In this document: piece by piece, positions 9,188 through 24,910 of the stretch
Layout: each line of letters begins with the position of its first letter
Numbering within the stretch: position 1 is the first letter of the stretch
Program-made: the position numbers and the translations under genes
Source of the DNA: Alloactinosynnema sp. L-07
GTDB taxonomy: Bacteria > Actinomycetota > Actinomycetes > Mycobacteriales > Pseudonocardiaceae
Direction of reading: 5' to 3'
Assembly (NCBI RefSeq): GCF_900070365.1
Contig: NZ_LN850107.1
Span: 6,076,001-6,140,000 of the forward strand
Length of the DNA: 64,000 bases
The notes under the pieces: generated by a model
Seen by the model: only the letters and a program-made list of their open reading frames with translations
Databases searched by the model: none
Told to the model about the DNA's origin: nothing

Positions 9188-9239
9188 GAGGTCACGTTAC
9201 GTGCCCGTGTCGACACGCGTCGCAAGTTATCCACAGGCT

Positions 9240-9402
9240 AGGGCGTGGTTGAGAAGTGGCGCACGCGATATCCGCGCCGAGGCGGCCCCTGACGGCACGG
9301 CCGGATTCGCCCGAATACGCCCGGTAGGAGGGCGATCCGGCCGCACCGCCAGGAGCCACCTCGATCACGGATCTCACGTACGCCACTTCTCAACCACGCC
9401 CT
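9240..9402. repeat. Long-hairpin element, copy 1
   Basis: A 163-bp element folding end to end. Outer arms 9240-9261 and 9381-9402 are perfect 22-bp inverted repeats. Inside, the left part (from 9262) pairs with the right part over another ~45 positions with one short asymmetry. Within-copy mismatches are almost all C opposite A or A opposite C on the plus strand, which become G-U pairs in a minus-strand RNA. A related copy is at 23539-23703. Flanks carry CTA on both sides (9238-9240 and 9401-9403), consistent with a target duplication. Either a non-autonomous mobile hairpin (MITE/REPIN-like) or a structured RNA. Confidence 0.85.
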
Positions 9403-9577
9403 ACTGCTTGCGGTGGCGGCCGATCCGGTGTGCGGGCTGCTCGACTTCGGCGGGCTCCAAGTCGTCGGCGTGATCTTCGCGCAGGATGGCGGTGAGTGTC
9501 TGGTTGGCTCGGCGCAGGCGCCAGATGATGAACGCCGCGAACAGCGCGGCTGTCACCACCCACAGTGCCGTCGCCAT
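9401..9577 (-). CDS. Small single-span membrane protein
   Basis: A 58-aa peptide with one transmembrane helix (A-T-A-L-W-V-V-T-A-A-L-F-A-A-F-I-I-W near residues 2-19), then a charged cytoplasmic tail (L-R-R-A-N-Q, ending R-I-G-R-H-R-K-Q). The ATG at 9577 was chosen over a GTG three codons upstream because an AGGTG ribosome site is correctly spaced for it. The TAG stop (9401-9403) coincides with the right end of the long-hairpin element, so the mRNA's 3' UTR would be that hairpin. No family recognised. Confidence 0.6.
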   Translation of the reverse strand: MATALWVVTAALFAAFIIWRLRRANQTLTAILREDHADDLEPAEVEQPAHRIGRHRKQ

Positions 9578-9715
9578 ACCAATCACCTGCCTTATGCCCT
9601 ATGACAAGGCTCCCACCCGGCAGGCCGCGACGCACGAACTTGACCGACGTTGCCGGTCCGGATCAACGGATTCCGCCCCTTCGGAGCAATCCGGACACTG
9701 TCCGTGACTGTCGAC

Positions 9716-10969
9716 TCAGGGCAGTTCGGCGCCGATCGCCTCGGCGGGCGTCGGGTGGACGGGGCCGGGGGCGGGGTGGCGCGGCAGGGTCTCGCGGGCG
9801 GGCAGCCAGATCAGGGCGGCCACGATGAGCAGGGCACCCGTGGCCAGGAACGAGGCGGTGTAGGACAGCTGGTCGGCGAGCACGCCCGCGATGATCGGGC
9901 CCAGGATCGCACCGATGTCGGCGACCATCTGGAACGCCGCGAGCACCTGGCCGCCGCGGGCGTTGCTGCCGATCACGTCGGCGACCGCGGCGCTCTGCGG
10001 CGGCGAGAGGATGCCCGTCCCGAGCCCGGCGACGGCGGTGAGCAGCATGAACACCGGGACCGACTCGGTGTAGCCGACGGCCATGGTGGCCAGTCCGGCC
10101 ACGACGAGTCCGATGAGGACCGGCGGTTTGCGGCCCCAGCGGTCCGACAGCCTGCCCGACACCATCAGCATCGCGACGTTGCCCGCCGCGAACACCGCCA
10201 GCGCGGTCCCGGCGAACGAGTCCTCGCGGTCGAGCACCTCGGTGATGAACAGCGGGACCAGCGACACGCGTACACCGAACGCCGCCCAGCCGTTGGCGAA
10301 GTTCGACGCCAGCGCCGCCCGGAAGCCGCTGTCGCGCATCGCGGTGCGCAGCGGCAGCTCAGGGTGCGGGTTCTCGCCTGCCTCGGCGATCAGGGTCGAC
10401 CCGCGCAGTGACAGCCAGACGATCAGGATGGCCACGACCAGCGCCGCGGCGTAGGCGATGAACGGCGCGCGCAGCGAGATCGTGATCAGCCCGCCGCCGA
10501 CCAGTGGGCCGACGACGGTGCCGAGCAGGAAGCTGGTGCCCCACAGGCCGGTCGCCTTGCCGCGCACGGTCGGTGGCGTCAGGTGCACCAGGAGGGCGAC
10601 CCCCGACACGGTGAACATGGTCGAGCCGATGCCGCCCAGCGCGCGGACGGTGACCAGCTGCCAGTACTCGTCGGCGAACGCGCAGGCGCCCGTGCTGACC
10701 GCGACGATCATCAGGCCGGTCAGGTACACCTTGCGCTCGCCGATCCGGCCGAGCAGCGCGCCCGCGGCGGGCGCGAAGACCAATCGGGCCACCGCGAACG
10801 CACTGACCACGATGGACGCCGCGGTCACGCTGACGTCGAAGCTGCGGGCGAAGGTGGGCAGGGCGGGCGCGACCAGGCCGAAGCCGATGGCGATGACGAA
10901 GTTGGCCGCGACCAGCACCCAGACTTCACGGGGGAGGGTCTCGGGCCGATCCAACGCAGACACCGTCAC
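9716..10969 (-). CDS. MFS transporter (drug efflux type)
   Basis: The 417-aa protein has 12 predicted transmembrane helices. The first-half loop motif reads G-R-I-G-E-R-K-V-Y (motif A) after helix 2, and the second-half equivalent is G-R-L-S-D-R-W-G-R-K-P-P. A G-x-x-x-G-P-L-V-G-G segment in helix 5 resembles antiporter motif C. These place it among proton-driven exporters; the substrate cannot be inferred. A 12-bp palindrome ACCCGATCGGGT lies about 50 bp upstream of its start, in the short gap to the ABC permease gene, and may be an operator. Confidence 0.9.
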   Translation of the reverse strand: MTVSALDRPETLPREVWVLVAANFVIAIGFGLVAPALPTFARSFDVSVTAASIVVSAFAVARLVFAPAAGALLGRIGERKVYLTGLMIVAVSTGACAFADEYWQLVTVRALGGIGSTMFTVSGVALLVHLTPPTVRGKATGLWGTSFLLGTVVGPLVGGGLITISLRAPFIAYAAALVVAILIVWLSLRGSTLIAEAGENPHPELPLRTAMRDSGFRAALASNFANGWAAFGVRVSLVPLFITEVLDREDSFAGTALAVFAAGNVAMLMVSGRLSDRWGRKPPVLIGLVVAGLATMAVGYTESVPVFMLLTAVAGLGTGILSPPQSAAVADVIGSNARGGQVLAAFQMVADIGAILGPIIAGVLADQLSYTASFLATGALLIVAALIWLPARETLPRHPAPGPVHPTPAEAIGAELP

Positions 10970-11059
10970 CCGAGACCGCCCCCAAGAAGTTGTTAGCTGC
11001 GCGAACTATATGTCGGAGTCACCCGATCGGGTAACTAGTTTCCGAGCCCGCGCATTCCG

Positions 11060-12643
11060 TCATCCGACATCGCGTCGACGGAACGCCGTGACACCCGCGC
11101 CGAAGAGCACGACCGCGGTCCCCGCGAGCCAGAGCAACGGCGTCGCGGTGAACTCCGCCCCCGGGATCCTCGGCACGTGGGTGAACGGCGAGATGTCGAG
11201 AACCGACTGGCTCAACTGGACCGCCGGGCCGAACAGCGTGATCAACGCGAACAGTGCGACCGCGCCCCATGCGACCGTGGTGACCTGGGGCAGCAGCCCG
11301 AACAGCAGCGCCGCGACGCCGCCGGCCACCCACACCGCGGGCAGCTGCGCGAGCGTTCCGGCCACGATCCCGCCGACCTGGCCCAGGTCGCCGATCCGCA
11401 GCCCGTGCGCCAGCCCCATCGCCAGTCCGGCGCCGCCCAGCAGCACCGCCGAGCCGATCACCGCGAACGCGAGATGGCTGCCCACCCACACCACCCGGCC
11501 TGCCCCGGTGGCGAGCACGGGTTCGGCGCGCGCGGCGGTCTCCTCCGACCGCGCCCGCAGCGCCGCCTGCACCGCGTACATCGCGGTCACGATGCCGATC
11601 AGCTGCGCGATCGCCGCGATGAACGAGTCGACCAGGCTCCGCGCCCCGCCCATCCGCTCCATGATCTCCCGCACCTGGTCGCTGGTGCCGACCAGATCGC
11701 TGATGCCGTTGGCGATCGACCCGAACACCGCCGCGACGATCACCGCGCCGACGGTCCAGCCGATGAGCGCGCCGCGCTGCAGCCGCCACGCCAGGCCGAG
11801 CGGGCTCGACAGCGACGCGGGCGCGGTCGCCGGACCCAGCCGCGCCGGGAACAGGCCCGCGCCGAGGTCGCGACGGGGCACCAGCGAGTACGCCACCGTC
11901 AGGATCACGCCCGCGACCAGGACGACCAGCCCAAGCGGCCACCAGTTGTCCGCGACGAACGGTTTGGCGCGCTGCGGCCAGGCCAGCGGCGAGAACCAGG
12001 ACACCCAGGACAGCGACGCCGTCGAGTCGCCGACCGCGCGGACCAGGAACGCGCCGCCCAACACCGCGCACGCGATCCCGTTGGCCGAGCGCGCGTATTC
12101 GGTCAGCTGGGCGGTCACCGCAGAGATCGCGGTGAACACCAGACCGGCGCCCGCGACGCCGAGTCCGAGCAGGAACGAGCCCGACGCGGGCAGCCCGGCC
12201 CCGACCAGACCGAGCGCCGCGGCGAGTCCGATCACGACGTTCGCGCCTGCCGCGACCGACACCGCCGCCGTCAGCGCCGCGTAGCGGCCGACCACCGCCG
12301 ACCCGATCAGTTCGAGCCTGCCGCTGTCCTCCTCCGCGCGTGTGTGCCGGGTGACGGTGAAGACGCTCATCAACGCGGCGAAGAGAGCCAGGAACAGCCC
12401 GTACCGCCACGCGGTGAACCCGCCCGCGGTGGTCAGGTCGTACGCCGGTCCGTAGATCACCGCGATCGACGGGTTGGCTCCCGCGCCCGCGCTCAGCGCC
12501 ACCCGGGACGCGGCGTCGGGATACAGCTGGTCGTAGGCCGCGACGGTGCTCGCGGGGGTGAGGCCGAGCAGCACGATCCAGATCGGCAGGATGATCCGGT
12601 CGCGGCGCAGTGCCAGCCGGATGAGCGGCCATGTCCCGGTCAT
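11060..12643 (-). CDS. ABC exporter permease, large two-module type
   Basis: The 527-aa polytopic protein has about 12 hydrophobic segments in two similar halves, the layout of the actinobacterial ABC permeases that pair with TylC/antibiotic-type exporters. In both halves a cytoplasmic loop carries an E-E-(D/T) motif ([12 protein letters not shown] in the first, R-S-E-E-T-A-A-R-A in the second). The start at 12643 overlaps the ATPase stop by 4 bp (ATGA), which fixes it against longer in-frame starts. Controlled with its ATPase by the divergent GbsR/MarR regulator, by context. Confidence 0.9.
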
Positions 12644-13533
12644 CGGGCGACTTCTTCCTGGTAGTGACGCAGGAACAGCTCTTCGAGCGTCGGCGGCTGA
12701 CTGGTCAGCGCGCGCACGCCGGAGTAGGTGAGCGCCTTGAGCGCGCCGTCGAGTTCCCGGGTGTCGACGTCGAAGGACACGTGGTTCCCGTTGACCTTCA
12801 CGTCGTGCACCCCCGCGAGCGCGGCGATGCCGTTGGGCGGGGTGGCCAACTCGGCGGTGATCGCGGTGCGGGTCAGGTGGCGCAGCTCCGACAGCGTGCC
12901 GGTCTCGACCGTGCGGCCCGCGCGGATGATGCTGACCCGGTCGCAAAGGGTCTCCACCTCGGCGAGGATGTGGCTGGACAGCAGCACCGTGCGCCCCCGG
13001 TCGCGCTCCTCCTCAATGCACTCCTGGAACACCGCCTCCATCAGCGGGTCCAGCCCGGAGGTCGGCTCGTCGAGCACCAGCAGTTCCACGTCCGAGGCCA
13101 GCGCCGCGACCAGCGCGACCTTCTGCCGGTTGCCCTTGGAGTAGGTGCGGCCCTTCTTGCGCGGGTCGAGGTCGAAGCGTTCCAGCAGGTCGGCCCGGCG
13201 GCGCTGGTCGAGCCCGCCGCGCAGCCTGCCGAGCAGGTCGATCACCTCGCCGCCGGACAGGGTCGGCCACAGCGAGACGTCGCCGGGCACGTAGGCCAGC
13301 CTGCGGTGCAGGGCCGTCGCGTCCTTCCACGGGTCGCCGCCGAGCAGCGTCGCGGTGCCGGAGTCGGATCGCAGCAGGCCGAGCAGGACGCGGATGGTCG
13401 TGGATTTGCCCGATCCGTTGGGGCCGAGGAAGCCGTGGACCTCCCCGGTCCGCACCGTCAGGTCGAGCCCGTCGAGCGCGCGGGTCCGGCCGAAGGTCTT
13501 GACCAGGCCGGACACCGAGATTGCGGTTGTCAT
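12640..13533 (-). CDS. ABC exporter ATP-binding protein
   Basis: The 297-aa ATPase has Walker [10 protein letters not shown] near residue 39, a degenerate signature Y-S-K-G-N-R-Q-K near residue 134, Walker [13 protein letters not shown] and S-S-H-I-L as the His switch. The YSKGNRQK signature is usual for this exporter subfamily. First gene of a two-gene operon with the permease. The 75-bp gap to the divergent regulator holds a dyad operator. Confidence 0.93.
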
Positions 13534-13553
13534 ACTTCAGAAGCTACTCTTAT

Positions 13554-13569
13554 TTCACAAACTTGTGAA
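13554..13569. promoter_or_regulatory. Operator-like palindrome between ABC exporter and GbsR/MarR regulator
   Basis: TTCACAA-AC-TTGTGAA is a perfect 7-bp-arm dyad in the 75-bp divergent gap. A smaller palindrome, CTTCAGAAG, sits at 13535-13543 next to the ATPase start. MarR-type dimers bind such short palindromes, so this is the probable autoregulatory operator. Confidence 0.6.
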
Positions 13570-13608
13570 CATTAAGAACTCGTAAGGGTGGCATGAGAAG
13601 GTGGGCCC

Positions 13609-14082
13609 GTGACCGAGAGATCCCAAGACGACGCGGTGGCCAGGTTCGTGGAGCGGTTCGCCCTGCTGCTGGCCGACGCGGGCATGGCGCGCATGCCCGC
13701 GCGAGTGTTCACCCGCCTGCTCGCCACCGACTCCGGCCGGATGACGGCGGGTGAGCTGGCCGAGGCGCTCAACGTCAGCCCGGCGGCGATCTCCGGCGCG
13801 GTCCGCTACCTCGACCAGGTCCATCTTGTCCACAAAGGACGGGAACCCGGCGAGCGGCGCGACCACTACGCGGTGGACGACGACACCTGGCTGGACGCGA
13901 TCACCAACCGCGACAAGCTCTACGACACGTGGAACGCCGCGCTCGGGGAAGGCGCCGAGGCGCTGGGCACCGACACGCGCGCGGGCAAGCGCATCGGCGA
14001 CACGCGGCGGTTCTTCGAGTTCCTGCAGAAGGAGACCCCGCTGCTCATGGAGCGCTGGCGTGCCCAGGAAAAGGGCCGTTGA
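13609..14082 (+). CDS. GbsR/MarR family transcriptional regulator
   Basis: The 157-aa winged-helix protein has the N-terminal helix with R-F-V-E-R-F-A-L-L-L-A-D-A-G-M-A-R-M-P-A-R, typical of the GbsR branch, and an HTH around residues 45-75 (L-A-E-A-L-N-V-S-P-A-A-I-S-G-A-V-R-Y-L). The GTG at 13609 has a GAAGG ribosome site. Divergent from the ABC exporter and flanked by a dyad, it is most likely the local repressor. Its stop overlaps the next gene (TGATG). Confidence 0.9.
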   Translation: MTERSQDDAVARFVERFALLLADAGMARMPARVFTRLLATDSGRMTAGELAEALNVSPAAISGAVRYLDQVHLVHKGREPGERRDHYAVDDDTWLDAITNRDKLYDTWNAALGEGAEALGTDTRAGKRIGDTRRFFEFLQKETPLLMERWRAQEKGR

Positions 14083-14810
14083 TGCGCGCGACAGTCGCCA
14101 CCGCAGCCCTGCTTCCCGTGCTCGCCGCCCAAGGCCTGATGCTGCGCCGCACCATCCCGCGGCTGCCCGGTGCGGACGGTCCCACCACCGGGACCGCGGG
14201 GTCCGGCGACCCGCTGCGCCTGGCCGTCCTCGGCGAGTCGACCGCGGCAGGCGTCGGCGCCCGCACCCACGCGGTCGGACTCGCCGGCAGGCTGGCCGAC
14301 GCCGTCGCCGCGCGCGGGCACGCCGTGCGCTGGCAGGTCTCGGCCCGGATCGGCGCCAACGCCCACGTCACCCGAACCGAACTGGCCGACGCGCTAGACC
14401 CGGCCGACGTCGTGCTGGTCGTGCTGGGCGTCAACGACGTGATCGAGTTCCACTCGGCCGCCCGCTGGACCCGCGACCTGCTGCGGCTGAGCATCGACCT
14501 GCGCGCCCGCCACGGTCGGATCGTGTTCGCCGGAGTGCCGCCGATGGACCGCTTCCCGGCGCTGCCGCGTCCACTTCGGACAGTCCTGGGACTCCGCGCG
14601 GCCGAACTCGACGCGGCGGCGGCGCGGATCGCTCGGCGGGTGCCGGGCGTGGGTCACGTGCCGCTGCCCGGTGAACTCGTCGACGGCGGGCTGTTTTGCG
14701 CCGACCGTTTTCACCCATCTGAGGCGGGGTATGCGCTGTGGGCCGACGGCCTGGCCGAGACGGTCAGCGCTCGGCCGCGCGGACCAGCTTCTTCGTCAGC
14801 GCTTCGATGA
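14082..14810 (+). CDS. SGNH/GDSL-type hydrolase, secreted or membrane-anchored
   Basis: The 242-aa protein has an N-terminal hydrophobic stretch (V-A-T-A-A-L-L-P-V-L-A-A) that may anchor or export it. SGNH blocks are present: L-G-E-S-T-A-A-G (catalytic Ser near residue 53), a block III G-V-N-D and the C-terminal D-R-F-H-P-S with the Asp/His pair. Members are esterases or lipases; the substrate is unknown. The ATG at 14082 shares its A with the regulator's TGA. The last 47 bp of the gene are also coding on the other strand for the SRPBCC protein. Confidence 0.88.
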   Translation: MRATVATAALLPVLAAQGLMLRRTIPRLPGADGPTTGTAGSGDPLRLAVLGESTAAGVGARTHAVGLAGRLADAVAARGHAVRWQVSARIGANAHVTRTELADALDPADVVLVVLGVNDVIEFHSAARWTRDLLRLSIDLRARHGRIVFAGVPPMDRFPALPRPLRTVLGLRAAELDAAAARIARRVPGVGHVPLPGELVDGGLFCADRFHPSEAGYALWADGLAETVSARPRGPASSSALR

Positions 14811-15246
14811 ACTTGTGCACGCCCAGCCGCAGCACCGCGCCCGTGCCGGGCAGCCGCTCGCCGAAGCTGCCGCGCCACACCAGGTCCGTGCCGCCGCCTT
14901 CGCGTGGGGTCAGCGTGATCTCGGCGGTGTAGTCGCGCAGCGGGCCAGGCGTGCGCAGGGCGTAGCGGTGGCGGCGGTCCTGTTCGTACTCCAGCGTCTC
15001 CTCGCGGACCAGGACCGGCTTGTGGCCCAGCAGCCGCACCGCGCCCACCCCGGCGGGCGCCGGGTCGCCGATGCGCTCGATCGCCGAGTACGACACCAGC
15101 GGTTTGGCCCACTCCGACCAGCGGGCGCCGTTGGCGACCAAGGCGAAGATCGTGGCGGCGTCCGCGGTGCTGCGGGCGGTCACCTCGAAGGCGAAGGTGG
15201 TGCGGCTGTCGACCATGCGCCACATCGTGACATCGAACGGTGGCAT
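14764..15246 (-). CDS. SRPBCC (START-like) domain protein
   Basis: The 160-aa protein matches the polyketide-cyclase/dehydrase type of SRPBCC fold: an N-terminal strand followed by A-T-I-F-A-L-V-A-N-G-A-R-W-S-E-W, then alternating beta strands with V-R-E-E-T-L-E-Y and a long C-terminal helix. Such proteins bind hydrophobic ligands in a deep cavity; no catalytic residues can be assigned. The first ATG (15246) has GAGG 8 nt upstream; a later Met would shorten it by ten residues. Its 3' end overlaps the convergent hydrolase gene by 47 bp. Confidence 0.82.
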   Translation of the reverse strand: MPPFDVTMWRMVDSRTTFAFEVTARSTADAATIFALVANGARWSEWAKPLVSYSAIERIGDPAPAGVGAVRLLGHKPVLVREETLEYEQDRRHRYALRTPGPLRDYTAEITLTPREGGGTDLVWRGSFGERLPGTGAVLRLGVHKFIEALTKKLVRAAER

Positions 15247-15263
15247 CCGCGTAGCCTCGTGCC

Positions 15264-16892: not shown

Positions 16893-16903
16893 GGGTCACA
16901 CCG

Positions 16904-17707
16904 CTAGATTCGCGCGGCGCTTTCCACGATCTCCTGGGCGGCGTCGGCGGTCAGCGGCTTCGGGGTGGCCGGGCCGCCCGCGAGGTCGCTGGTCACGACC
17001 AGCAGCGAGATCTCCTTGTCGCTGAGGGGAACGGCCAGCACGGTGACCTCGGCGTCCGACGCCTCACACGCGGCGTCGGCGACCTTGGGTGTGACCTTGA
17101 CGGTGACCACCACGGCCGGATCGCCGTCGACCTCGGTGGCACTGCTCCTCGGTGCCCCGACCTGGCCGCCCGGATAGAAGCGCTCGCCGAACGCCTTGGC
17201 GAAGGTGGCCGCCGTGGGCTCCGGGTTCAGGCGCTGCTCGGACTTGCTTCGCGCCGCCGCGCTGACGGCGAACGACCTTGTGTAGGTGTTGTTACCGCAT
17301 TGATATGCGCCGTAGGCGGCGGTTCCGCCGAACTCGACGCCGAGTACCTCGACGGTTCGGTCACTGGTCTTCCAACCGTCCGGGACCTGGTAGCCCAGCC
17401 GGGCCCGCGGATTGTCGATCCGACCCGGTTCCGGCGCCGATGTCCGGGTCGACGTGGGAGTTTGGCTCGCAGTCTGGCTCGGCCGGGTGCTCGGTGGGGC
17501 GGAGACGGGCTCCGGGGTACCGCCATTCCGGTTCAGCAAAACGATAGTGATCACAGTGGCGACAATGATCACGATCGCGGTGACACTGAGGATTGCGGGC
17601 AATAACGAGCGACCCCTGGTCGGGGATTCGCCGAATCCCGCAGATGTCGGAAACCCGCTATCAGTGGGTTGGTCCCGCAGCGGGTCGTCGTTGTGCCAGC
17701 CGCTCAC
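16904..17707 (-). CDS. Membrane-anchored hypothetical protein
   Basis: The 267-aa protein has a proline-rich cytoplasmic N-terminus, one transmembrane helix near residues 40-63 (A-I-L-S-V-T-A-I-V-I-I-V-A-T-V) and a Thr/Pro/Ser-rich linker before an outer domain with four cysteines. The domain resembles the small secreted lipoprotein-like domains common in actinobacteria (an A-Y-Q-C-G-N-N-T segment), but I cannot name it. GTG 17707 was chosen because upstream in-frame sequence is AT-rich and promoter-like; an ATG further upstream (near 17806) is possible. Confidence 0.65.
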   Translation of the reverse strand: MSGWHNDDPLRDQPTDSGFPTSAGFGESPTRGRSLLPAILSVTAIVIIVATVITIVLLNRNGGTPEPVSAPPSTRPSQTASQTPTSTRTSAPEPGRIDNPRARLGYQVPDGWKTSDRTVEVLGVEFGGTAAYGAYQCGNNTYTRSFAVSAAARSKSEQRLNPEPTAATFAKAFGERFYPGGQVGAPRSSATEVDGDPAVVVTVKVTPKVADAACEASDAEVTVLAVPLSDKEISLLVVTSDLAGGPATPKPLTADAAQEIVESAARI

Positions 17708-17867
17708 CGGCTGACGATAACCCGGCCCCGACCTCGGTGGACGTGGTTTCGGAGAGTGTCCTAGTTGGACAGGGTCACCTGATGGAGTAGTTGCCAAATC
17801 GGAATGTGACCCCATTGAGGGACTAGGTACAACGCTCGGTAGAGTCCGCCGCACTGATCTACGGTGA

Positions 17868-17884
17868 TCACCCCATTCGGGTGA
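17868..17884. promoter_or_regulatory. Dyad in the regulatory gap upstream of the thioester adhesin gene
   Basis: TCACCC-CATTC-GGGTGA is a perfect 6-bp-arm dyad about 95 bp before the adhesin start, inside a 271-bp divergent gap. Nearby GATC-containing repeats (GTGATCAC, GTTGATC) flank it. A regulator-binding site is likely; which regulator is unknown. Confidence 0.4.
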
Positions 17885-17978
17885 GTTGATCTCCGGCAGT
17901 CGGTGGCGGCGGACTTCTGGGCGAATCCGCGCGCATCCAGCAGTCCAGGATTGACGTCGGATCCGTTCAAGGAGAGTC

Positions 17979-19166
17979 ATGGGCCGTTCCTCCCTCCGCC
18001 GCGCCGGTGTCGCGATCGCCGCCGCCGCAGCCACCCTCACGCTGGCCGCGCTTCCCGCGGCCGCCGACCCCGTCGTCGGGCGCGTCCAGCACGAGCCGAA
18101 GGCTGAGGGCTGGGAAGTCAACATGGGCGGTGGCAACCTCGGCGAGATCCAGCCGACGCTGTTCACCCTCAAGCTCAACGACGGCTCGACGCTGCGTGTC
18201 TACTGCGTCGAGATCCACGTCAACCTCAACCACGACGAGGACATGGTCGAGGTCCCGTGGGACGAGTACCCCGTGCAGGACTCCCCGTTCCACCTGAACC
18301 GCGCGAAGGTCAACTGGGCGCTGCACAACGGCTTCCCGGGCAAGACGCTGGCCGAGCTCAACGCCATCCCCGGCCTTGAGTGGAGCGAGGACGGCCTTGA
18401 GGAGCGCGAGGCCATCTCCGCGACCCAGGCCGCGGTGTGGCACTTCAGCGACGACGTCGACCTCAACCAGAAGAACCCGACGCCGACCCGCGAAGACGCC
18501 GAGAAGGATGTCCTCGCGCTCTACAACTACCTCGTCGGCGAGGCCAACGTCGGCATCGAGGACCAGCCCACCCCGGCGCTGGAGGTCAACCCGGACGCCA
18601 AGAGCGGCGAGGCGGGCAAGCTCGTCGGCCCGTTCACCGTCAGCACCAACGGCGGCATCACCGAGATCGTGAAGAAGCTGCCCGAGGGTGTCTCGCTGAC
18701 CGACAAGGACGGCAAGGAGATCGCCGCCGGTGACATCAAGGACGGCACCGAGCTGTACCTGAAGGTCCCGGCAGGCGCCGCCGCCGGCTCTGGCGAGTTC
18801 CAGCTCAAGGGCGAGTCCAAGCTCGACACCGGCAGGCTCTTCGTGGTCGAGAACCGCGACAAGCGCGGCCAGTCGCTGATCGTGGCCGACTCGCAGCTGA
18901 TCAAGGTCGAGGCGGGCGCCAAGGGCGACTGGAAGGTCGCGCCGACCACGCCGCCGAGCACCACCACGACCACGACCACCACGGCGCCGTCGACCACCAC
19001 CACGACGACGGCCCCGCCGGTCACCACGACCACCACCCCGGTCCCGCCGGGCAGCGACCTGCCGGACACCGGTGCCTCGATCCTGCTGCCGGTCCTGATC
19101 GGTGTCGGACTCGTGGGCGCGGGCACCGGCGCGGTGCTCTACCAGCGCCGCCGCCGCTCCGCCTGA
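17979..19166 (+). CDS. LPXTG-anchored Cys-Gln thioester (TQXA) adhesin-like protein
   Basis: The 395-aa precursor has a signal peptide (R-R-A-G-V-A-I-A-A-A-A..., cleavage near A-A-A-D at residue 30). The next ~170 residues form a thioester domain: Cys76 in R-V-Y-C-V-E and Gln150 in S-A-T-Q-A-A-V-W-H-F are placed to make the internal Cys-Gln thioester that lets such Gram-positive adhesins bond covalently to host or surface amines. A linker domain, a long Thr/Pro wall-spanning region (about 320-355), L-P-D-T-G at 361, a hydrophobic helix and an R-R-R-R tail complete a sortase substrate. No sortase gene is in the window. Confidence 0.9.
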   Translation: MGRSSLRRAGVAIAAAAATLTLAALPAAADPVVGRVQHEPKAEGWEVNMGGGNLGEIQPTLFTLKLNDGSTLRVYCVEIHVNLNHDEDMVEVPWDEYPVQDSPFHLNRAKVNWALHNGFPGKTLAELNAIPGLEWSEDGLEEREAISATQAAVWHFSDDVDLNQKNPTPTREDAEKDVLALYNYLVGEANVGIEDQPTPALEVNPDAKSGEAGKLVGPFTVSTNGGITEIVKKLPEGVSLTDKDGKEIAAGDIKDGTELYLKVPAGAAAGSGEFQLKGESKLDTGRLFVVENRDKRGQSLIVADSQLIKVEAGAKGDWKVAPTTPPSTTTTTTTTAPSTTTTTTAPPVTTTTTPVPPGSDLPDTGASILLPVLIGVGLVGAGTGAVLYQRRRRSA

Positions 19167-19180
19167 TAGCGCACTGAGCT

Positions 19181-19211
19181 GAGCCCCTTCCGGCTGGTCC
19201 GGAAGGGGCTC
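19181..19211 (+). terminator. Intrinsic terminator after the adhesin gene
   Basis: Perfect 13-bp stem (19181-19193 with 19199-19211) around a 5-nt loop, 15 bp after the adhesin stop codon. Confidence 0.85.
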
Positions 19212-19318
19212 ACTCATCTGCGGCGCCGAGTCGCGAACTGAGCGGGAATGGGTAAGTTGCCGGTTGGTACCCTGCTGGAAGGGTGCACAGCAGACTTTTG
19301 AGTGCGTGAGGAGCACCG

Positions 19319-19522
19319 ATGGGCATCGACTTCAACGAGCTGAAGAACAAGGCGGAAGACCTTGTCGAGCAGCACGGCGACAAGATCGAGCAGGGCGTCG
19401 AGAAGGCGGGCGAGTTCGTCAAGGGCAAGTTCGGCCACGACGAGCAGGTCGACGGGGTCGTCGACAAGATCCAGGACATGATCCCGGACAAGCCCGGCAC
19501 CGCCGAGGGCACTCAGGCGTGA
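19319..19522 (+). CDS. MT0933-like small antitoxin family protein
   Basis: A 67-aa charged helical protein beginning M-G-I-D-F-N-E-L-K-N-K-A-E-D-L-V with a lysine/glutamate amphipathic repeat, matching the MT0933/Rv0909-like 'antitoxin' family of actinobacteria. In mycobacteria the relative is paired with a toxin, but most actinobacterial copies are orphan. No toxin-like gene is adjacent here; the next gene is a glycolipid-binding-domain protein starting in a GTGA overlap. A stress or general protein role is equally possible. AGGAG ribosome site upstream. Confidence 0.75.
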   Translation: MGIDFNELKNKAEDLVEQHGDKIEQGVEKAGEFVKGKFGHDEQVDGVVDKIQDMIPDKPGTAEGTQA

Positions 19523-20160
19523 ACTTAGGCAATCAGGCCGACGAGCGGGTCCTTCCTCCGGGAGGGACCCGCTCGCCTGCTGCCCGCAAACCGACCATCC
19601 ACACCTGGCAGCGGGTCAGCCCGCCCCGGTTGGAGTCCGTGCGGCTGCTGGTCGCCGAGACCCGGCTGCGCGCGTCGGGCAGGCTCATCGCCGCCGCGGA
19701 CGGCGACGTCGAGGCGTTCAGCGCGTCGTTCGAGGCGTCGGTCGACAAGGGTGAGACCGCTGGTCGACTGCTGCTGCGCACGACCACCGCCGAAGAGGAA
19801 CGCCAGATCTCGCTGAGCCGGACCGAGGACGGCGCCTGGCTGGTCGACCGGGCCGGTGCCTCCCGGCGCGAGGAGTTCGATGGCTCGCTGACGGTCGCGG
19901 TCGCGGGCGCGGTCACCTTCCACACGCTGCCGATCCGCAGGCTGGGCCTGCACCGCACGCCCGGCGAGGCGGAGCTGCCGGTGGTGTGGGTGAACGCCCC
20001 GGATCTGGCGGTCAGCCTGGTCACCCAGTCCTATCGCACGGTATCCATCGACGCCGACGGCGCGGTGATCGCGTTCACGCAGAACGGTGAGACGACCGAG
20101 TTGACCGTGGACACCGACGGCGTGGTCGTCGACTTCCCCGGCGTGGCGGGCCGGGTCTAG
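19519..20160 (+). CDS. Putative glycolipid-binding domain protein
   Basis: The 213-aa product contains P-R-L-E-S-V-R-L-L-V near residue 40, E-A-F-S-A-S-F-E-A and T-T-A-E-E-E-R-Q-I-S-L-S-R, the pattern of the putative glycolipid-binding family (formerly DUF1089). Function is not established in that family. The only in-frame start before the conserved domain is GTG 19519, overlapping the previous stop as GTGA; it adds ~30 residues compared with typical members. A strong hairpin (19542-19575) lies inside these extra codons, so the true start or coupling deserves care. Confidence 0.75.
   Translation: MNLGNQADERVLPPGGTRSPAARKPTIHTWQRVSPPRLESVRLLVAETRLRASGRLIAAADGDVEAFSASFEASVDKGETAGRLLLRTTTAEEERQISLSRTEDGAWLVDRAGASRREEFDGSLTVAVAGAVTFHTLPIRRLGLHRTPGEAELPVVWVNAPDLAVSLVTQSYRTVSIDADGAVIAFTQNGETTELTVDTDGVVVDFPGVAGRV
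19542..19575 (+). terminator. Hairpin within the 5' codons of the glycolipid-binding gene
   Basis: An 11-bp perfect stem (19542-19552 with 19565-19575) lies 20 bp after the antitoxin-like gene's stop. It looks like that gene's terminator, yet sits inside the annotated N-terminus of the next coding region. It may work as an attenuator between the two. Confidence 0.55.
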
Positions 20161-20213
20161 ACCCTGCCTGCGAGTCCGGCACGCGCTATCCCGCGTACGG
20201 ATTCATAGGTCAT

Positions 20214-22187
20214 CTAGATGGTGAACGGCGCGTAGGCCACGGCGAAGGCCGCCCGCGCGTCGACGCCGATCGCTTTGACCTCGATCGTGTGCGCGCCCGC
20301 CGACAGTCCCGTGGTGTTGAGCGCCAGCCGCCAGACCCCCGCCACGCCAGGGCCGTCGGCGACGGTCGGGATGCCCGCGATCTTCGTCCCGTCCAGCCGC
20401 ACCTCGACCCCGGCCAACCCGGCCAGTTCGCCGCCGAGCCGTTGGCCGCCGGGGCCGTCCGCGGTCACCTCCAGCACCAGCCGCCCGCGTGGCACCGCCG
20501 TGTCGGCCGCGATGGGCTGGCCCGCCGCGTCGAGGAACCGGGCCGACGGCCGGGCCAGCGCCAGCCGGGTGCGCGCCAGCGGCACGTCCGTGCCGGACCC
20601 GGCCGCCGCCGACACCGCCCCCGGCGGGGCCAGCAGCTCGATCGACGCGCTGACGATCCGCGCGGCGCCCTCACCCCGGCGGAACGGCCCGCGCACCCGC
20701 ACGGGCAGCGTGTCACCGTCGGCGCGCAGGATCAGGGCCTCGGCGGGCACGTCGGCCACGATCGGATAGCGCACGCCGCGGATCAGCGGCTGACCCGCGA
20801 CGGCGGGTCGGGTGGGGAACTCGCGGCCGCCGACCTCGACGGTGTAAAGGTGCTCCATCGGGGTGGCGTTGCCGGGCACCAGCGTCACCCGCAACTGCGC
20901 GCCGACCGTGCCGCCGACCCGGGCACCGCCGGACGGGGTGGACAGCTGCGGGCCGGACTCCATCACCCGGCCGGTGTCGAGCACGGGCGGGGCCACGAGC
21001 ACCGGCGGCGCGGTCTCCGCGCCCAGGAAGCCGACCAGGTCCACCGCGGCGCGCAGCCCGCCGGGTCCGCCGACGAACCCGAGCAGCGCCGTCGCCTCCC
21101 GCCACGCGGGCACCACGTCGCCGCCGCCGACCACCTTGCCGTCGCGGACCACCCGGATCCCGTCGGCCCGGAACACGACCTCCCAGCGCGTCGAGATCCC
21201 GATCTCCGCGGGCGCCATCGGCGTCAGTGCCACCGCACCGCCCAACCGCGGGGTGCCTGCCGCGACGAGCACCTGCGCGGTCGGCACCGTCGCCCCCGCT
21301 ATCCGGATCCGGACCGCGCCGGGTGGGAGCCCGGGGTCGTCCTGCGCGAGGCCGGGCGGACCGGACGGGCCGGGCACGTTGACCGAGCCGATCAGGTCGG
21401 CCGGGCCGGGGACGAGGTCGATGGTCAGCTCTCCGGCCTGTCCAGGGTGGTCGGTCTCCAGGACCAGCCGCCCCAACTCGCCTGCCACGGGGGCGTCGCG
21501 CAGCCGGAACGGCGCCCGCGACCGCAGCACCAGCGGATCCGCGCCGCACTGCCCGCTCACCACCATCCGCTTGCCGTCCTGACCCTCGCCGCGGGTGGCC
21601 CGACCGCAGTCGGAGGTCCCGGCCAGCCGCCACCGCGACGGCTCCGGCACCACCCGCGAGGCGAACCGGTCGACAAACACCCACGGCGGCTCGTTCTCCG
21701 GCGCCCGCGGCGTGCCCACGGTCAACGCGGGCATCGAGCGCTTGCCGAACGAGTCGATCGTCCGCACCTCGATCTGATACGCCACATCGTTGTCCAACGC
21801 GTCGAGTTGGGCGACGGGCTGGGAGAGCAGCCGGACGTTGGTGAGCGTGCCGTCGCGACCCCAGCGGATCTCGTACCCCGCCGCGCGCTCGGGCTCCGGC
21901 TTGCCCGTCCGCTGCGGCCCCCACGCCACCAGCAGCCGCTGCGGCCCCGAGTCGACGCTCAGCCCCTCCGGCTGGGCAGGGGGATTGCCGGGGGACGGGA
22001 TAACGACGGCGTCGCCTGCGAACTCTTTGACTGTGGTCTGTGGCGGGGCGACGGGTTTTGGCAGGTCAGCAGCTTGTTCGGGGGACCGCAGCACCGCGAC
22101 GGCCCCGCCGATGACGACCACCCCGGCCACGATGATCGCGGCACGCCGAAGCAGCGTCTTGCGGCCGGGCGGCGGGGGTTGATCCAC
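20214..22187 (-). CDS. Large membrane-anchored protein with fibronectin type III domain
   Basis: The 657-aa protein has a cytoplasmic N-terminal R-K-T-L-L-R-R, a transmembrane helix near residues 14-33, a Pro-rich linker and an FN3 domain at about 70-160 (P-E-G-L-S-V..., L-L-V-A-W-G-P, A-A-G-Y-E-I-R-W, V-A-Y-Q-I-E-V-R). The remaining ~480 residues are beta-rich repeats with no family I can name and two cysteines near 190-210. Single gene, probably surface exposed. FN3 modules in actinobacteria often accompany glycan or wall binding, but no catalytic domain is visible. Confidence 0.7.
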   Translation of the reverse strand: MDQPPPPGRKTLLRRAAIIVAGVVVIGGAVAVLRSPEQAADLPKPVAPPQTTVKEFAGDAVVIPSPGNPPAQPEGLSVDSGPQRLLVAWGPQRTGKPEPERAAGYEIRWGRDGTLTNVRLLSQPVAQLDALDNDVAYQIEVRTIDSFGKRSMPALTVGTPRAPENEPPWVFVDRFASRVVPEPSRWRLAGTSDCGRATRGEGQDGKRMVVSGQCGADPLVLRSRAPFRLRDAPVAGELGRLVLETDHPGQAGELTIDLVPGPADLIGSVNVPGPSGPPGLAQDDPGLPPGAVRIRIAGATVPTAQVLVAAGTPRLGGAVALTPMAPAEIGISTRWEVVFRADGIRVVRDGKVVGGGDVVPAWREATALLGFVGGPGGLRAAVDLVGFLGAETAPPVLVAPPVLDTGRVMESGPQLSTPSGGARVGGTVGAQLRVTLVPGNATPMEHLYTVEVGGREFPTRPAVAGQPLIRGVRYPIVADVPAEALILRADGDTLPVRVRGPFRRGEGAARIVSASIELLAPPGAVSAAAGSGTDVPLARTRLALARPSARFLDAAGQPIAADTAVPRGRLVLEVTADGPGGQRLGGELAGLAGVEVRLDGTKIAGIPTVADGPGVAGVWRLALNTTGLSAGAHTIEVKAIGVDARAAFAVAYAPFTI

Positions 22188-22353
22188 GACGTCAACGTAG
22201 GGCCGGTGTGCGGCCGGTCACGGTTTTGTTGCCGACCCGATATCTGCGCACGTTGTCCACAGGCACCACCGAACCAAGATCATCTGTCGCCCTGCTCGGA
22301 TAGACTGGTTCAAGGGCCGCCCCCCAGGGCGGGTGGGGTTTGTGCGCTCGCGG

Positions 22354-22440
22354 TCATCGGGCTGAGATCGGGACTTCGGCCACAGCCGTCGTGCTCTCGA
22401 ACCCGATCACCCGGCCCGCGGTCACCTTGACGCCGAGTCC
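22354..22440 (-). pseudogene. Diverged partial copy of the prephenate dehydrogenase 3' end
   Basis: Sequence from 22361 to about 22420 repeats 22551-22610, the last codons of the prephenate dehydrogenase gene, at roughly 85% identity. In the same frame it encodes G-R-V-I-G-F-E-S-T-T-A-V-A-E-V-P-I-S-A-R then TGA, against G-R-V-V-G-F-D-G-T-M-A-V-A-E-V-P-I-S-A in the intact gene. No start or upstream domain is present, so it is a remnant. Tandem duplication followed by deletion is the simplest history. Confidence 0.75.
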
Positions 22441-22546
22441 CGGCGCCCATCGGACTCGCGCCTGCCGGGTTGCGCTGCGAGTCGCAGCCAACCAGGCCCG
22501 TCTACGACCTCGCGCCGCCCCCAGGCCTAGGGCAGTGCGCGGGTTG

Positions 22547-23521
22547 TCAGGCCGAGATCGGGACCTCGGCCACGGCCATCGTGCCATCGAACCCGACCAC
22601 CCGGCCGCCGTCCGCGCCGATCACCGACAGTTCCTCCAGCACGTTCCCGCCTTCAAGATCCACCAGTACCCGCGCCGACTTAGCCGCCCGGTGGGCGTCC
22701 AGCGTCAGCCGACCGTCGTGCCCCGCCTGCACCGTCGCACGCAGCGCGCCGGTTGAGGCAAGGGCGCCGCGGGCGGCGCCGAGGCGGCCGAGGGCTTCGT
22801 CGACGGCCGCAAGCAGAGCGGCGCGATTTCCCTCGCACATGGCCAACACCAGGTCGGGCCGCGTGCCCATCACCCGGGTCCCGTCGCCGAAGGAGCCCGC
22901 CGCCAGGGCCAGCGCCAACGGGCCACCGTCGACTCCGCAGGCGGCCAGCACCGCGGCGAGCACGTGTGGCAGGTGCGAGATCCGCGCTACCGCCGCGTCG
23001 TGCTCGCCCGCGGAGACCGGGACCACGTGCGCGCCGCAGTCCATGGCCAGGTCGGCGGCCGCGCGCCAAGCGGTGAAGTCGGTGTCGTCGTCGGTGGTGA
23101 CGACCCAGGCCGCGCCCTGGAACAGCTCGGCCGAGCCCGCCGACCAGCCCGAGTCGGACGTGCCCGCCATCGGGTGCCCGCCCGCGTACCGGGTCGCGGG
23201 CGCGTACCGGGCGACTGCCTCCGCCACCGGAGCCTTGACGCCTGCCACGTCGGTCAGCAGACACTCCGGCGCGAACTCGGCGACCCGCCGCAGCACCTGG
23301 TCGACGGCGGTCAGCGGCACCGCGAGGACCACCAGCGCGTCCTCGCGGCCAGCCCGTCGAAGCGCGTCCTCCACTGACCCGATGTCGAAGCCGGACGCGG
23401 CGGCGGCCTCCGCGTCGGTCTCCGACGCCGTCGCGCCCCACGCCGGGCGGCCCGCGCCGACCGCCGCGCGCAGTACCGAGCCGCCGATGAGTCCCAGGCC
23501 GATCACGCACACCGATCGCAT
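22547..23521 (-). CDS. tyrA: Prephenate dehydrogenase
   Basis: The 324-aa NAD(P)-dependent enzyme oxidatively decarboxylates prephenate to 4-hydroxyphenylpyruvate in tyrosine synthesis. The Rossmann motif is I-G-L-G-L-I-G-G-S near residues 7-15; substrate-site motifs G-G-H-P-M-A-G-T near residue 117 and S-H-L-P-H-V near residue 181 carry the conserved histidines. No ACT domain, and slightly long at the C-terminus, as in other actinobacteria. ATG 23521 has AGGA 7 nt upstream. The long-hairpin element (copy 2) ends 18 bp upstream of this start, so it would lie in the 5' UTR or promoter. Confidence 0.93.
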   Translation of the reverse strand: MRSVCVIGLGLIGGSVLRAAVGAGRPAWGATASETDAEAAAASGFDIGSVEDALRRAGREDALVVLAVPLTAVDQVLRRVAEFAPECLLTDVAGVKAPVAEAVARYAPATRYAGGHPMAGTSDSGWSAGSAELFQGAAWVVTTDDDTDFTAWRAAADLAMDCGAHVVPVSAGEHDAAVARISHLPHVLAAVLAACGVDGGPLALALAAGSFGDGTRVMGTRPDLVLAMCEGNRAALLAAVDEALGRLGAARGALASTGALRATVQAGHDGRLTLDAHRAAKSARVLVDLEGGNVLEELSVIGADGGRVVGFDGTMAVAEVPISA

Positions 23522-23538
23522 CGACACATCCTGCCCTA

Positions 23539-23703
23539 AGAGCGCGTCTGGGAACTGGCGCACGCGATAGCCGCGCCGAGATGGCTCCTGGCGGCACGGC
23601 CGGATACGCCCACAGACCACTCCGGTATGCGGCCGATCCGGCCGCACCGCCAGGAGCCATCTCCATCACGACTCTCACGCACGCCAGTTCCCAGACGCGC
23701 TCT
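23539..23703. repeat. Long-hairpin element, copy 2
   Basis: A 165-bp element with perfect 22-bp outer arms (23539-23560 and 23682-23703) and an inner stem that includes 17 consecutive pairs, then two positions that would be G-U in minus-strand RNA, then 9 more pairs. It shares internal sequence with copy 1 (9240-9402), for example C-G-C-A-C-G-C-G-A-T-A near the left and C-A-C-C-G-C-C-A-G-G-A-G-C-C-A near the right. Its outer arms differ from copy 1 at six positions, each compensated on the opposite arm. Flanked by CTAAG direct repeats (23536-23540 and 23702-23706). Confidence 0.87.
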
Positions 23704-24910
23704 AAGACCCCAGCACCGCCAGCGCGAACGCGGCGTACGTGGTGACCCCGTGCGCCATCGCGGCCTCGTCGAACACCACCCGGTTGGAGTGGTTGGGCGG
23801 GGCGTCGGCCGGTTCCATCCCCGGCGGGCAGGCGCCGAGGAAGGCCATCGCCCCCGGCACGCGCTGCAGGACATAGGAGAAGTCCTCCGCGCCCATCAGC
23901 GGGTTGGGCATGATGTTGGCCTGCCCGCCGACCTTGCCCACCAGCTTCACCAGCCACTCCGCGACGACCGCGTCGTTGACCGTCACCGGGTAGCCCGGCT
24001 TGATGTCGACTTCGACCTCGCACCCGTGCGCCGCGCCGACATTCACGCAGACCCTCGCGATCTCCTCGACCATCGTCTTGCGGGTCTGCTCGGACAGCGT
24101 GCGCAGCGTGCCCTCCAGCAGCGCCGTCTCCGGGATGATGTTGGACGTGGTCCCGGCCGTGATCCGGGCGACGGTGACGACCGCGGGCTCGAAAACGCTG
24201 ACCCGTCGGGTCACCGCGGTCTGCAGCGCGCCCACCATCGCCGCCGCCGCGGGCACCGGGTCGAGCGCGTCGGCCGGGGTGGACGCGTGGCCGCCCCGAC
24301 CGGTTACCACGACCCGGAACGAGTCCGCGCTCGCCATGATCGGACCCGGCCTGCACCGGATCACCCCGGACTTCTCCTTGGACGTGATGTGCAGCGCCAG
24401 CGCCTTCTCCACCGGATTGTCCGCGGCGTCGAGCACGCCTTCGTCGAGCATGAACCGGGCGCCGTGGTGGCCTTCCTCGCCCGGCTGGAACATGAACACG
24501 ACCTGCCCGGAGAGCGCGTCGCGCCGGTCGTGGAGCAGGCGCGCGGCCGAGGCGAGCATCGCGACGTGGGTGTCGTGGCCGCAGGCGTGCATGGTGCCGT
24601 CCTCGACCGAGGCGAACTCCAGCCCGGTCTCCTCGGTCAGCGGCAGCGCGTCCATGTCGCCGCGCAGCAGCACGGCCGGACCGGGGCGCGCGCCGCTGAG
24701 CACGGCGACGACCGAGCCGACGGCGGTGCCGGTCTGGATCTTGAGGTCGAGGCCGTCGAGCGCGTGCAGCACCGCGGCCTGGGTGCGGGGCAGCGTGAGC
24801 CCCTGTTCTGGGTGTTTGTGCAGCTGTCGGCGGAGGGCGACGGTCTTGGGCTGGAGCGCCCTTGCGGCTTCGAACAGGCCGCTGAACCTCGGGTCGGGCT
24901 GCGTCTTCAT
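23702..24910 (-). CDS. M20 family amidohydrolase/metallopeptidase
   Basis: The 402-aa enzyme of the M20D group (N-acyl amino-acid, hippurate or indole-3-acetyl amide hydrolases) carries the di-metal ligands in G-D-M-D-A-L-P, H-A-C-G-H-D-T-H, P-G-E-E-G (catalytic Glu) and G-A-E-D-F-S-Y. The central dimerisation domain has G-R-G-G-H-A-S-T. Cytosolic; exact substrate unknown. The TAG stop lies on the right end of the long-hairpin element. The gene reads toward tyrA, but the hairpin separates them. Confidence 0.92.
   Translation of the reverse strand: MKTQPDPRFSGLFEAARALQPKTVALRRQLHKHPEQGLTLPRTQAAVLHALDGLDLKIQTGTAVGSVVAVLSGARPGPAVLLRGDMDALPLTEETGLEFASVEDGTMHACGHDTHVAMLASAARLLHDRRDALSGQVVFMFQPGEEGHHGARFMLDEGVLDAADNPVEKALALHITSKEKSGVIRCRPGPIMASADSFRVVVTGRGGHASTPADALDPVPAAAAMVGALQTAVTRRVSVFEPAVVTVARITAGTTSNIIPETALLEGTLRTLSEQTRKTMVEEIARVCVNVGAAHGCEVEVDIKPGYPVTVNDAVVAEWLVKLVGKVGGQANIMPNPLMGAEDFSYVLQRVPGAMAFLGACPPGMEPADAPPNHSNRVVFDEAAMAHGVTTYAAFALAVLGS

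What the first reader, a model, noticed from the sequence alone, without database searches (positions are those of the whole stretch)
9240..23703. Two long-hairpin elements with compensated arm changes and minus-strand G-U bias
Elements at 9240-9402 (163 bp) and 23539-23703 (165 bp) each fold end to end. The 22-bp outer arms are perfect within each copy yet differ between copies at six positions, all compensated on the opposite arm; a seventh compensated change is in the inner stem. Within each copy, nearly all remaining mismatches are C-A or A-C on the plus strand, i.e. G-U in RNA read from the minus strand (one T-C mismatch and a 1-nt bulge excepted). Compensation plus one-sided wobble is what selection on an RNA fold gives. 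Both elements lie between minus-strand genes and could be in their transcripts. A drifting mobile hairpin (MITE/REPIN) is the main alternative, but random drift should not favour one strand's wobble.
Basis: partly seen in the sequence, partly recalled or inferred. Interest (0 to 1): 0.8.

Follow-up and report, generated by a model that had tools for sequence, protein, structure and literature searches.

The report
Mobile hairpins with one-sided G-U pairs
The two hairpins belong to a large family of short mobile DNA elements in soil bacteria whose two halves keep matching each other as one RNA strand would, which suggests that a hitch-hiking piece of DNA carries a conserved hairpin RNA.

Summary
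Both elements are near-complete hairpins (z -17.5, -19.3) of a multi-copy family found in 88 of 249 sampled genomes of the window's family, 15 genomes of another family and Streptomycetaceae plasmids. The family is mobile: YTAR target, probable TA duplication, one clean empty site of six pairs viewed, and an IS630 with the same target in this genome. The one-strand wobble survives its controls: with duplicates and wobble-oriented copies removed, Watson-Crick pairs became G-U 160 times and A-C 25 times, against 81:100 for the same changes in unpaired columns. The bias is alike in both replication orientations (15:3, 25:7). Best reading: an IS630-type MITE whose interior is a conserved hairpin RNA. 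Unforeseen: the G-U strand lies mostly on the leading-strand template (34 of 48; 22 of 26 in G000, hand tally; not in G093, 5 of 13), and elements often sit on stop codons of convergent genes. No transcript was examined, no transposase with the common ends was found in the genomes searched, and the RNA's function is unknown.

The parts
9241..9401 (-). hairpin element 1; the minus strand is the well-paired (G-U) strand
   Evidence: CM hit G000:C1:6085259-6085383 minus, E 1.2e-25 (this copy is one of the 19 in the CM)
9239..9240 (.). TA at the left end of element 1 (inside CTAG 9238-9241), proposed target duplication
   Evidence: empty-site comparison at another locus
9402..9403 (.). TA at the right end of element 1; part of the TAG stop (9401-9403) of the minus-strand ORF before it
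9401..9577 (-). 58-aa ORF (looks like a small membrane protein, by reading) whose stop codon is the element boundary; not called by my gene caller
   Evidence: translation ends GRHRKQ* at the boundary; absent
8663..9187 (-). next minus-strand gene, downstream of element 1 on the G-U strand
23540..23702 (-). hairpin element 2 (GAGCGCG end type); the minus strand is the well-paired strand
   Evidence: CM hit G000:C1:6099558-6099684 minus, E 1.0e-20 (this copy is also in the CM)
23537..23539 (.). TAA at the left end of element 2, proposed 3-bp target duplication
23703..23705 (.). TAA at the right end of element 2; overlaps the TAG stop (23702-23704) of the minus-strand gene before it
23702..24910 (-). 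minus-strand gene that ends on element 2
22547..23506 (-). next minus-strand gene, downstream of element 2 (start uncertain)

Best explanation
The elements are non-autonomous mobile DNA (MITE type) of about 165 bp. They insert at TA inside YTAR (mostly CTAG, often the stop codons of genes) and were probably moved by an IS630/Tc1-type transposase; the window's second element has another end type with 3-bp flanks. Their interior is a conserved hairpin RNA: one strand, the minus strand in the window, is kept paired by selection when read as RNA, G-U being accepted and A-C not. Shown by computation: dispersed copies with one clean empty site and flank duplications, covariation, strand-specific wobble that unpaired columns lack, a conserved tip (RUAC-loop-GUAY) and G-U pairs fixed at the same place in most copies. 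Inferred: that the molecule under selection is RNA rather than single-stranded DNA. [quoted passage not shown] this would also explain why most copies have the better-pairing strand on the leading-strand template. Not known: promoter, partner protein, function of the RNA.
For: Covariation: 19 diverse copies, 37 of 54 pairs with two-sided changes, score 0.528 against 0.202 in shuffles and at most 0.110 in slid controls. Wobble in copies oriented without counting wobble: G-U to A-C 980:33 in 86 pattern-oriented copies, 609:18 in 60 and 200:13 in 20 CM-oriented copies. Changes on a tree: WC to G-U 229 and to A-C 39 in 176 rows; without duplicate loci and wobble-oriented copies 160:25 in 137 rows, unpaired control 81:100, Fisher p 1e-17. 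Private changes among copies over 88% alike 82:15 paired, 28:21 unpaired; over 96% alike 20:1. Same bias in both replication orientations: 15:3 in 14 copies and 25:7 in 32 (with wobble-oriented copies 16:4 and 36:10), so it belongs to the element's own strand. Mobility: L132 has one CTAG where L061 has CTAG..CTAG; TTAG..CTAA flanks in seven copies (L126, L144, L045, L191, L216, L237, L241) fit a TA duplication; two IS630 copies in G000 have ends C-TA|GTGTCGCGTGAT..|TA-G, and L046, from another genome, has the matching end CTAGTGTCCCG. Orientation: 34 of 48 copies in seven single-contig genomes and 22 of 26 in G000 (hand tally; origin from dnaA; terminus assumed opposite) have the G-U strand on the leading-strand template; p 7e-6 for 57 of 75, which counts one more copy, L050.
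Against: No transcript evidence. The G-U strand is not preferentially sense to neighbouring genes (29 sense, 34 antisense), so outside transcription does not explain the strand choice, and no internal promoter was identified (none was searched for). G-T is also better tolerated than A-C in DNA hairpins (DNA parameters: mean -77 against -63 kcal/mol, 157 of 157), so single-stranded DNA could be the selected molecule. No IS with the common ends was found in G000 or G242; not all lone ends were examined. Five of six empty-site pairs were not clean. Some copies have TA on one side only (for example L188, L204, L208, L210) or complementary non-TA flanks (L203 CTGG..CCAG, L225 TTGG..CCAA; L011), which a simple TA duplication does not give. 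Element 2's end type has 3-bp flanks. L043, L050 and L056 lack a clear strand bias. The replication-orientation bias fails in G093 (5 of 13) and is absent between divergent genes (4:4).
Confidence: 0.55

Rival explanations
1. [quoted passage not shown] This leaves G-T, G-G and T-T only on the other strand.
For: New mismatches on the G-U strand: G-G 25 to C-C 12, T-T 6 to A-A 3, A-G 23 to C-T 29 in one resolution of ties; G-G to C-C is 20:12 and 22:14 in two others, and 23.2:12.5 on average without duplicate loci. This is the asymmetry expected from NucS specificity (PMC11551767 and PMC8228993, passages). Mismatches visible on the other strand are depleted more than invisible ones (odds ratio 0.47, p 5e-4; 0.43, p 0.002 in the stricter set). 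The replication-orientation bias fits. A 246-bp interrupted palindrome forms a lagging-strand hairpin cut by SbcCD in E. coli (PMC3315005, passages); CTG/CAG repeats show strand-dependent instability (PMC3310812, passages).
Against: Copies in the opposite replication orientation should show the reverse bias but show the same one (G-U to A-C 15:3 against 25:7; 16:4 against 36:10). A-G and C-T mismatches, not NucS targets, are also depleted 3.5-fold against G-U, so pairing itself is constrained. RNA also tends to tolerate G-G and U-U better than C-C and A-A (recalled). The same E. coli paper says that an 85-bp palindrome is not such a target. NucS was not looked for in these genomes.
Confidence: 0.17
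2. Single-stranded DNA mobile element (IS200/IS605- or REPIN/RAYT-like), in which one DNA strand must fold for a HUH transposase.
For: One strand folds better also with DNA parameters; orientation follows replication; REPs carry tetranucleotide tags and GT pairing was noted in them (PMC3733652, abstract and passages).
Against: The strand that would have to be single-stranded lies mostly on the leading-strand template. The clean empty site shows a duplication. G000 has one Y1 transposase hit, next to a TnpB-like ORF. The outer arms are perfect inverted repeats of variable sequence, not a fixed tag.
Confidence: 0.08
3. Two different conserved double-stranded DNA protein sites in the two arms; the fixed G-U positions are only places where the two sites differ.
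For: Seven G-U pairs are fixed in 62-99% of 157 rows (for example columns 40-127 TG in 156), with conserved flanking letters.
Against: Wobble also exceeds A-C for private changes away from the local consensus, in outer and inner stem alike (38:7 and 44:8), and variable positions covary.
Confidence: 0.07
4. Host-domesticated 3'-end element: a bidirectional terminator or mRNA stabiliser between convergent genes.
For: 72 of 166 copies lie between convergent genes and 34 have both neighbours' stop codons at their two ends. On terminal branches the wobble bias is strongest where the G-U strand is sense (26:3; antisense 21:8, divergent 14:3, convergent 36:16, no test made).
Against: CTAG is rare (32 seen, 178 expected from base composition in the window, 8 of the 32 at called stop codons), so insertion there can follow from target choice. 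The bias is weakest, not strongest, between convergent genes and is present in antisense and divergent settings.
Confidence: 0.1
5. Strand mutation bias or drift of a dead palindrome.
For: None found beyond the bias itself.
Against: Unpaired columns show no such bias (86:107; 28:21; 81:100); two-sided compensations are frequent (40 among close copies).
Confidence: 0.03

Closest known systems
IS630/Tc1-mariner MITEs
   Same: Short, multi-copy, inverted ends, TA in YTAR/CTAG as target. IS630 preference for TA in CTAG is the title of Tenzen and Ohtsubo 1991, seen only in the reference list of PMC2170065; TA duplication by ISY100 is stated in its passages.
   Different: Paired over nearly the whole length with one-strand wobble, a conserved tip, fast-changing but mutually matching ends, orientation bias with replication; no autonomous partner with the common ends found in the genomes searched.
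REP/REPIN (GTAG- and CGTC-tagged palindromes, PMC3733652, abstract and passages)
   Same: Repeated palindromes, mostly between unidirectional and convergent ORFs; GT pairing noted there and read as a hint of RNA.
   Different: About 165 bp as one hairpin, CTAG target with duplication, no RAYT seen in G000, found in Pseudonocardiaceae and Streptomycetaceae; that paper's main text has 0 occurrences of actinobacteria, streptomyces and amycolatopsis.
Small mobile bacterial repeats such as RUP, Correia/NEMIS and ERIC (names recalled; PMC2229807 and PMC10969869 seen only as listings)
   Same: Mobile intergenic repeats that can be transcribed and fold.
   Different: No systematic one-strand covariation or replication-linked orientation is known to me; this is recall, not a test.
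Structured RNA families (Rfam 15)
   Same: Covarying helix with a conserved tip.
   Different: No match at gathering score at either element (whole window); for 9200-9440 at E up to 10 four miRNA precursor models and one mgtE fragment, all below gathering.

Membership tests
IS630-type MITE | short non-autonomous element with terminal inverted repeats in many loci | tested here: met
IS630-type MITE | 2-bp TA target duplication in YTAR | tested here: inconclusive
   for: one clean empty site (L061/L132; CTAG leaves TA and CTAG duplication both possible) and TTAG..CTAA flanks in seven copies. Against: several copies with TA on one side only or TG..CA flanks; the GAGCGCG end type of element 2 has identical 3-bp flanks in 3 of 4 G000 copies (reading)
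IS630-type MITE | autonomous element with matching ends | tested here: inconclusive
   common ends: none with a transposase found in G000 or G242 (not every lone end was examined); rare end type of L046 matches IS630 copies L264/L265 of G000, but L046 is from another genome
REPIN/RAYT | GTAG or CGTC tag and RAYT (Y1) transposase | tested here: not met
   ends CTAG/TTAA; one Y1 hit in G000, in an IS605-like gene pair by reading; other genomes not searched for Y1
IS200/IS605-like ssDNA element | no target duplication; active strand on the lagging-strand template | tested here: not met
structured non-coding RNA | covariation beyond controls | tested here: met
   R-scape itself was not run
structured non-coding RNA | expressed transcript | not testable with these tools
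   no RNA-seq held
known Rfam family | match at gathering score | tested here: not met
   whole window; 9200-9440

The most novel reading that the evidence does not exclude
A mobile RNA family of high-G+C soil bacteria: a hairpin RNA gene of about 160 nt with a conserved RUAC-loop-GUAY tip travels on exchangeable transposon ends across Pseudonocardiaceae and Streptomycetaceae. Its G-U pairs are selected because they keep the RNA paired while the DNA palindrome is broken on the lagging-strand template, so that one element resolves the conflict between RNA pairing and DNA palindrome instability.
Probability: 0.3. Interest if true: 0.82.

Novelty: new variant of a known kind. Interest (0 to 1): 0.62.

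Why it matters
Long palindromes are unstable DNA, yet this family has kept a nearly fully paired 160-nt hairpin across genera and two bacterial families. It offers many natural replicates for asking whether G-U pairs are used to keep an RNA folded while breaking a DNA palindrome, and whether palindrome survival depends on replication direction. If the RNA is real, it is an RNA family that Rfam does not hold; if not, the strand rule still needs a DNA explanation.

Tried and rejected
An autonomous element with the same ends was sought with a 22-bp end and a 15-bp end in G000 and a 15-bp end in G242, G005 and G014. Ten stretches around partial or lone ends and eleven more showed remnants of hairpins or chance matches and no pair of good ends around a gene; the genes there were not identified, and some lone ends (for example G000 3011835, 7104370, 6940945; most of those in G005 and G014) were not fetched. 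The Y1 transposase of G000 was taken up as a RAYT candidate and dropped, as it sits beside a TnpB-like ORF (by reading). Rfam at E up to 10 gave only sub-threshold models. Plasmid search with window element 1: no match. Phage search with a copy from the second family (L290): no match. Viral contigs, one pattern: none. GC skew of small stretches did not help to confirm the leading strand; dnaA was used. Two orthologous pairs differ inside the element (L115/L197, L093/L200); arm-to-arm correction and second insertion at the same site are not resolved.

Rows dropped, and weaknesses of the counts. One search reported 91 stretches and named 80. One search used 86 of 91. The 46 copies were oriented by G-U over A-C, which is circular, and 14 sources there were left out as weak; one search repeats the main counts without them. 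Alignments left out copies outside 158-176 nt, over 178 nt or over 190 nt. At least four loci stand twice in the 157 and 176 rows (for example L015/L156, L131/L231, L033/L202, L045/L201); removes them. One search printed three of five resolutions of ties, and the tests use the first. The G000 replichore tally (22 of 26) left out 5329758 (ends ambiguous), the degenerate pair at 6261137-6261393, the short derivatives and the lone ends. dnaA was located in 14 further genomes, but only the seven with copies among the rows listed were used. One search scored 14 candidates per genome, so copy numbers are floors; fetched 60 of the places it listed. The gene caller is my own codon-score script, so stop-codon and orientation counts are approximate; one search left out the copies.
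Full report
Observation. Both elements are in the sequence as described. The minus strands fold end to end at -153.1 and -155.9 kcal/mol, against means of -75.2 and -77.5 in 200 shuffles each, z -17.5 and -19.3. The outer 22 bp are perfect inverted repeats in each copy, and the two arm sequences differ at six positions, each compensated. In a strand-neutral arm alignment each has 9 G-U and 0 A-C on the minus strand. Each element begins at the TAG stop codon of the minus-strand ORF before it.

Where it is. The window lies at 6.076-6.140 Mb of a 7.41-Mb single-contig genome, G000. Identical flanks tie a same-genus genome to Actinokineospora iranica (L035 of G013; L088), so the genus is probably Actinokineospora (inference). 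G000 holds several end types: those of the two window elements, one type with 18 copies that have both 22-bp ends at full spacing, and tandem, truncated and 54-bp derivatives. A pattern scan of public genomes found 91 stretches; the 80 named in the list are from Actinokineospora, Amycolatopsis and Crossiella. A covariance model of the core (19 copies, both window elements among them) matched 88 of 249 sampled genomes of the family at E 1e-3. In the class it matched 18 of 394 at E 1e-5: two of the own genus, 15 of one genus of another family, one elsewhere. Elements of that other genus match 23 and 32 plasmid records of Streptomyces, Embleya and (first search only) Kitasatospora, so it is probably Streptomyces (inference). 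They have the same CTAG ends and the same kind of tip, and 200 G-U against 13 A-C in 20 copies.

Mobility. At the locus of L061 the relative L132 has a single CTAG where L061 has CTAG-element-CTAG, with flanks about 95% alike; the other five pairs viewed were not clean. Copies flanked by TTAG..CTAA (L126, L144, L045, L191, L216, L237, L241) fit a duplicated TA in YTAR better than a 4-bp duplication. Against this, some copies have TA on one side only, and L011, L203 and L225 have TTGG..CCAA or CTGG..CCAG. ISY100 duplicates TA, with some one-sided exceptions, and IS630 prefers CTAG (PMC2170065, passages and a title in its reference list). Two of three DDE_3 hits in G000 (L264, L265) have ends C-TA|GTGTCGCGTGAT at CTAG, and the hairpin L046, from a genome of another family, has the matching end CTAGTGTCCCG. 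The commoner ends (CTAGG.C.TGTCC) were not found around a transposase in G000 or G242. The GAGCGCG type, to which window element 2 belongs, has 3-bp flanks and may use another transposase.

Pairing. On 19 diverse copies 95.4% of cells form standard pairs and 37 of 54 pairs change on both sides; none of 500 shuffles and no slid control comes near. On 157 rows the cells are WC 8480, G-U 1585, A-C 45, other mismatch 212. Some G-U pairs are fixed as G-U: columns 40-127 in 156 of 157, 60-107 in 143, 37-129 in 142.

Is the one-sided wobble mutation or selection? Among copies over 88% alike, Watson-Crick pairs changed to G-U 82 times (C to T 49, A to G 33) and to A-C 15 times (7 and 8), while unpaired positions changed 28 to 21 (Fisher p 5e-4). 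On a tree of 176 rows the one-sided changes are 229 and 39, with 86 and 107 in unpaired columns. Without duplicate loci and without copies that had been oriented by wobble, 137 rows give 160 and 25 against 81 and 100 (p 1e-17). The bias holds in outer and inner stem (38:7, 44:8) and among copies over 96% alike (20:1). So it needs pairing; it is not a strand mutation bias. It is not universal: L043, L056 and L050 are near even, and L050 and L056 have the tip reversed (reading).

Which strand reads it? The G-U strand is not the sense strand as a rule: 29 sense against 34 antisense between co-directional genes, 72 convergent, 24 divergent and 7 with a gene on one side only, among 166 copies. In the window 10 of 62 adjacent gene pairs are convergent. 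The strand does follow replication. With dnaA as origin and the terminus assumed opposite, 34 of 48 copies in seven single-contig genomes have the G-U strand on the leading-strand template; in G000 it is 22 of 26 by hand tally. G093 shows no bias (5 of 13). By gene setting the split is 17:4 between co-directional genes (8:3 where the G-U strand is sense, 9:1 where antisense), 13:6 convergent and 4:4 divergent. As the outer ends are perfect inverted repeats, a double-strand transposase can hardly tell left from right, so the bias more likely arises after insertion (inference).

DNA or RNA? A lagging-strand hairpin of a 246-bp palindrome is cut in E. coli, while an 85-bp one is not a target (PMC3315005, passages). 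Actinobacterial NucS attacks G-T, G-G and T-T but not A-C, C-C or A-A (PMC8228993 and PMC11551767, passages). The mismatch spectrum leans that way: G-G 25 to C-C 12 (20:12 and 22:14 under other tie choices), T-T 6 to A-A 3, A-G 23 to C-T 29. Mismatches visible on the other strand are depleted more than invisible ones (p 5e-4; p 0.002 in the stricter set). But if that were the cause, copies in the opposite replication orientation should show the reverse bias, and they do not: G-U to A-C 15:3 in 14 such copies and 25:7 in 32 others (16:4 and 36:10 with wobble-oriented copies). The bias belongs to the element's own strand. I therefore prefer selection on RNA pairing, with lagging-strand instability as a second filter that sets orientation and perhaps the use of G-U. 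Single-stranded DNA of that strand is not excluded: DNA parameters also favour it in 157 of 157 rows.

Weak points. No transcript, promoter, partner protein or function is known. On terminal branches the wobble bias is 26:3 where the G-U strand is sense, 21:8 antisense, 14:3 divergent and 36:16 convergent; this is small and untested. The ten paper searches gave listings in which I saw no description of this family; that is a statement about those listings only.

Noticed in passing
window 1-64000: CTAG occurs 32 times against 178 expected from base composition; 8 lie at called stop codons.
   Followed up: partly
G000:C1:6261137-6261393 (L252:2130-2396): Two degenerate hairpin elements side by side after a gene end.
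   Followed up: no
G000:C1:2416629-2416682, 4803901-4803954, 4837071-4837124; G242:C1:1386828-1386905, 5243472-5243558, 9085058-9085119: Paired ends only 54-87 bp apart, as if the middle had been lost by slippage at a palindrome (only the first two were read).
   Followed up: no
L043, L050, L056: Divergent elements (G019, G031) with a similar tip but little or no strand bias; in L050 and L056 the tip reads in reverse relative to the other copies.
   Followed up: partly
L115 and L197 (orthologous insertion sites, flanks 94% alike): The element differs at 21 positions with six fully compensated pairs, faster than its flanks: arm-to-arm correction, conversion by another copy, or a second insertion at the same site.
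   Followed up: partly
G000:C1:4831705-4832067 (L180): IS605-like TnpA/TnpB pair (by reading), the only Y1 transposase hit in this genome.
   Followed up: partly
window 9401-9577, minus strand: 58-aa ORF with one likely membrane span (by reading) whose stop codon is at the element boundary.
   Followed up: no
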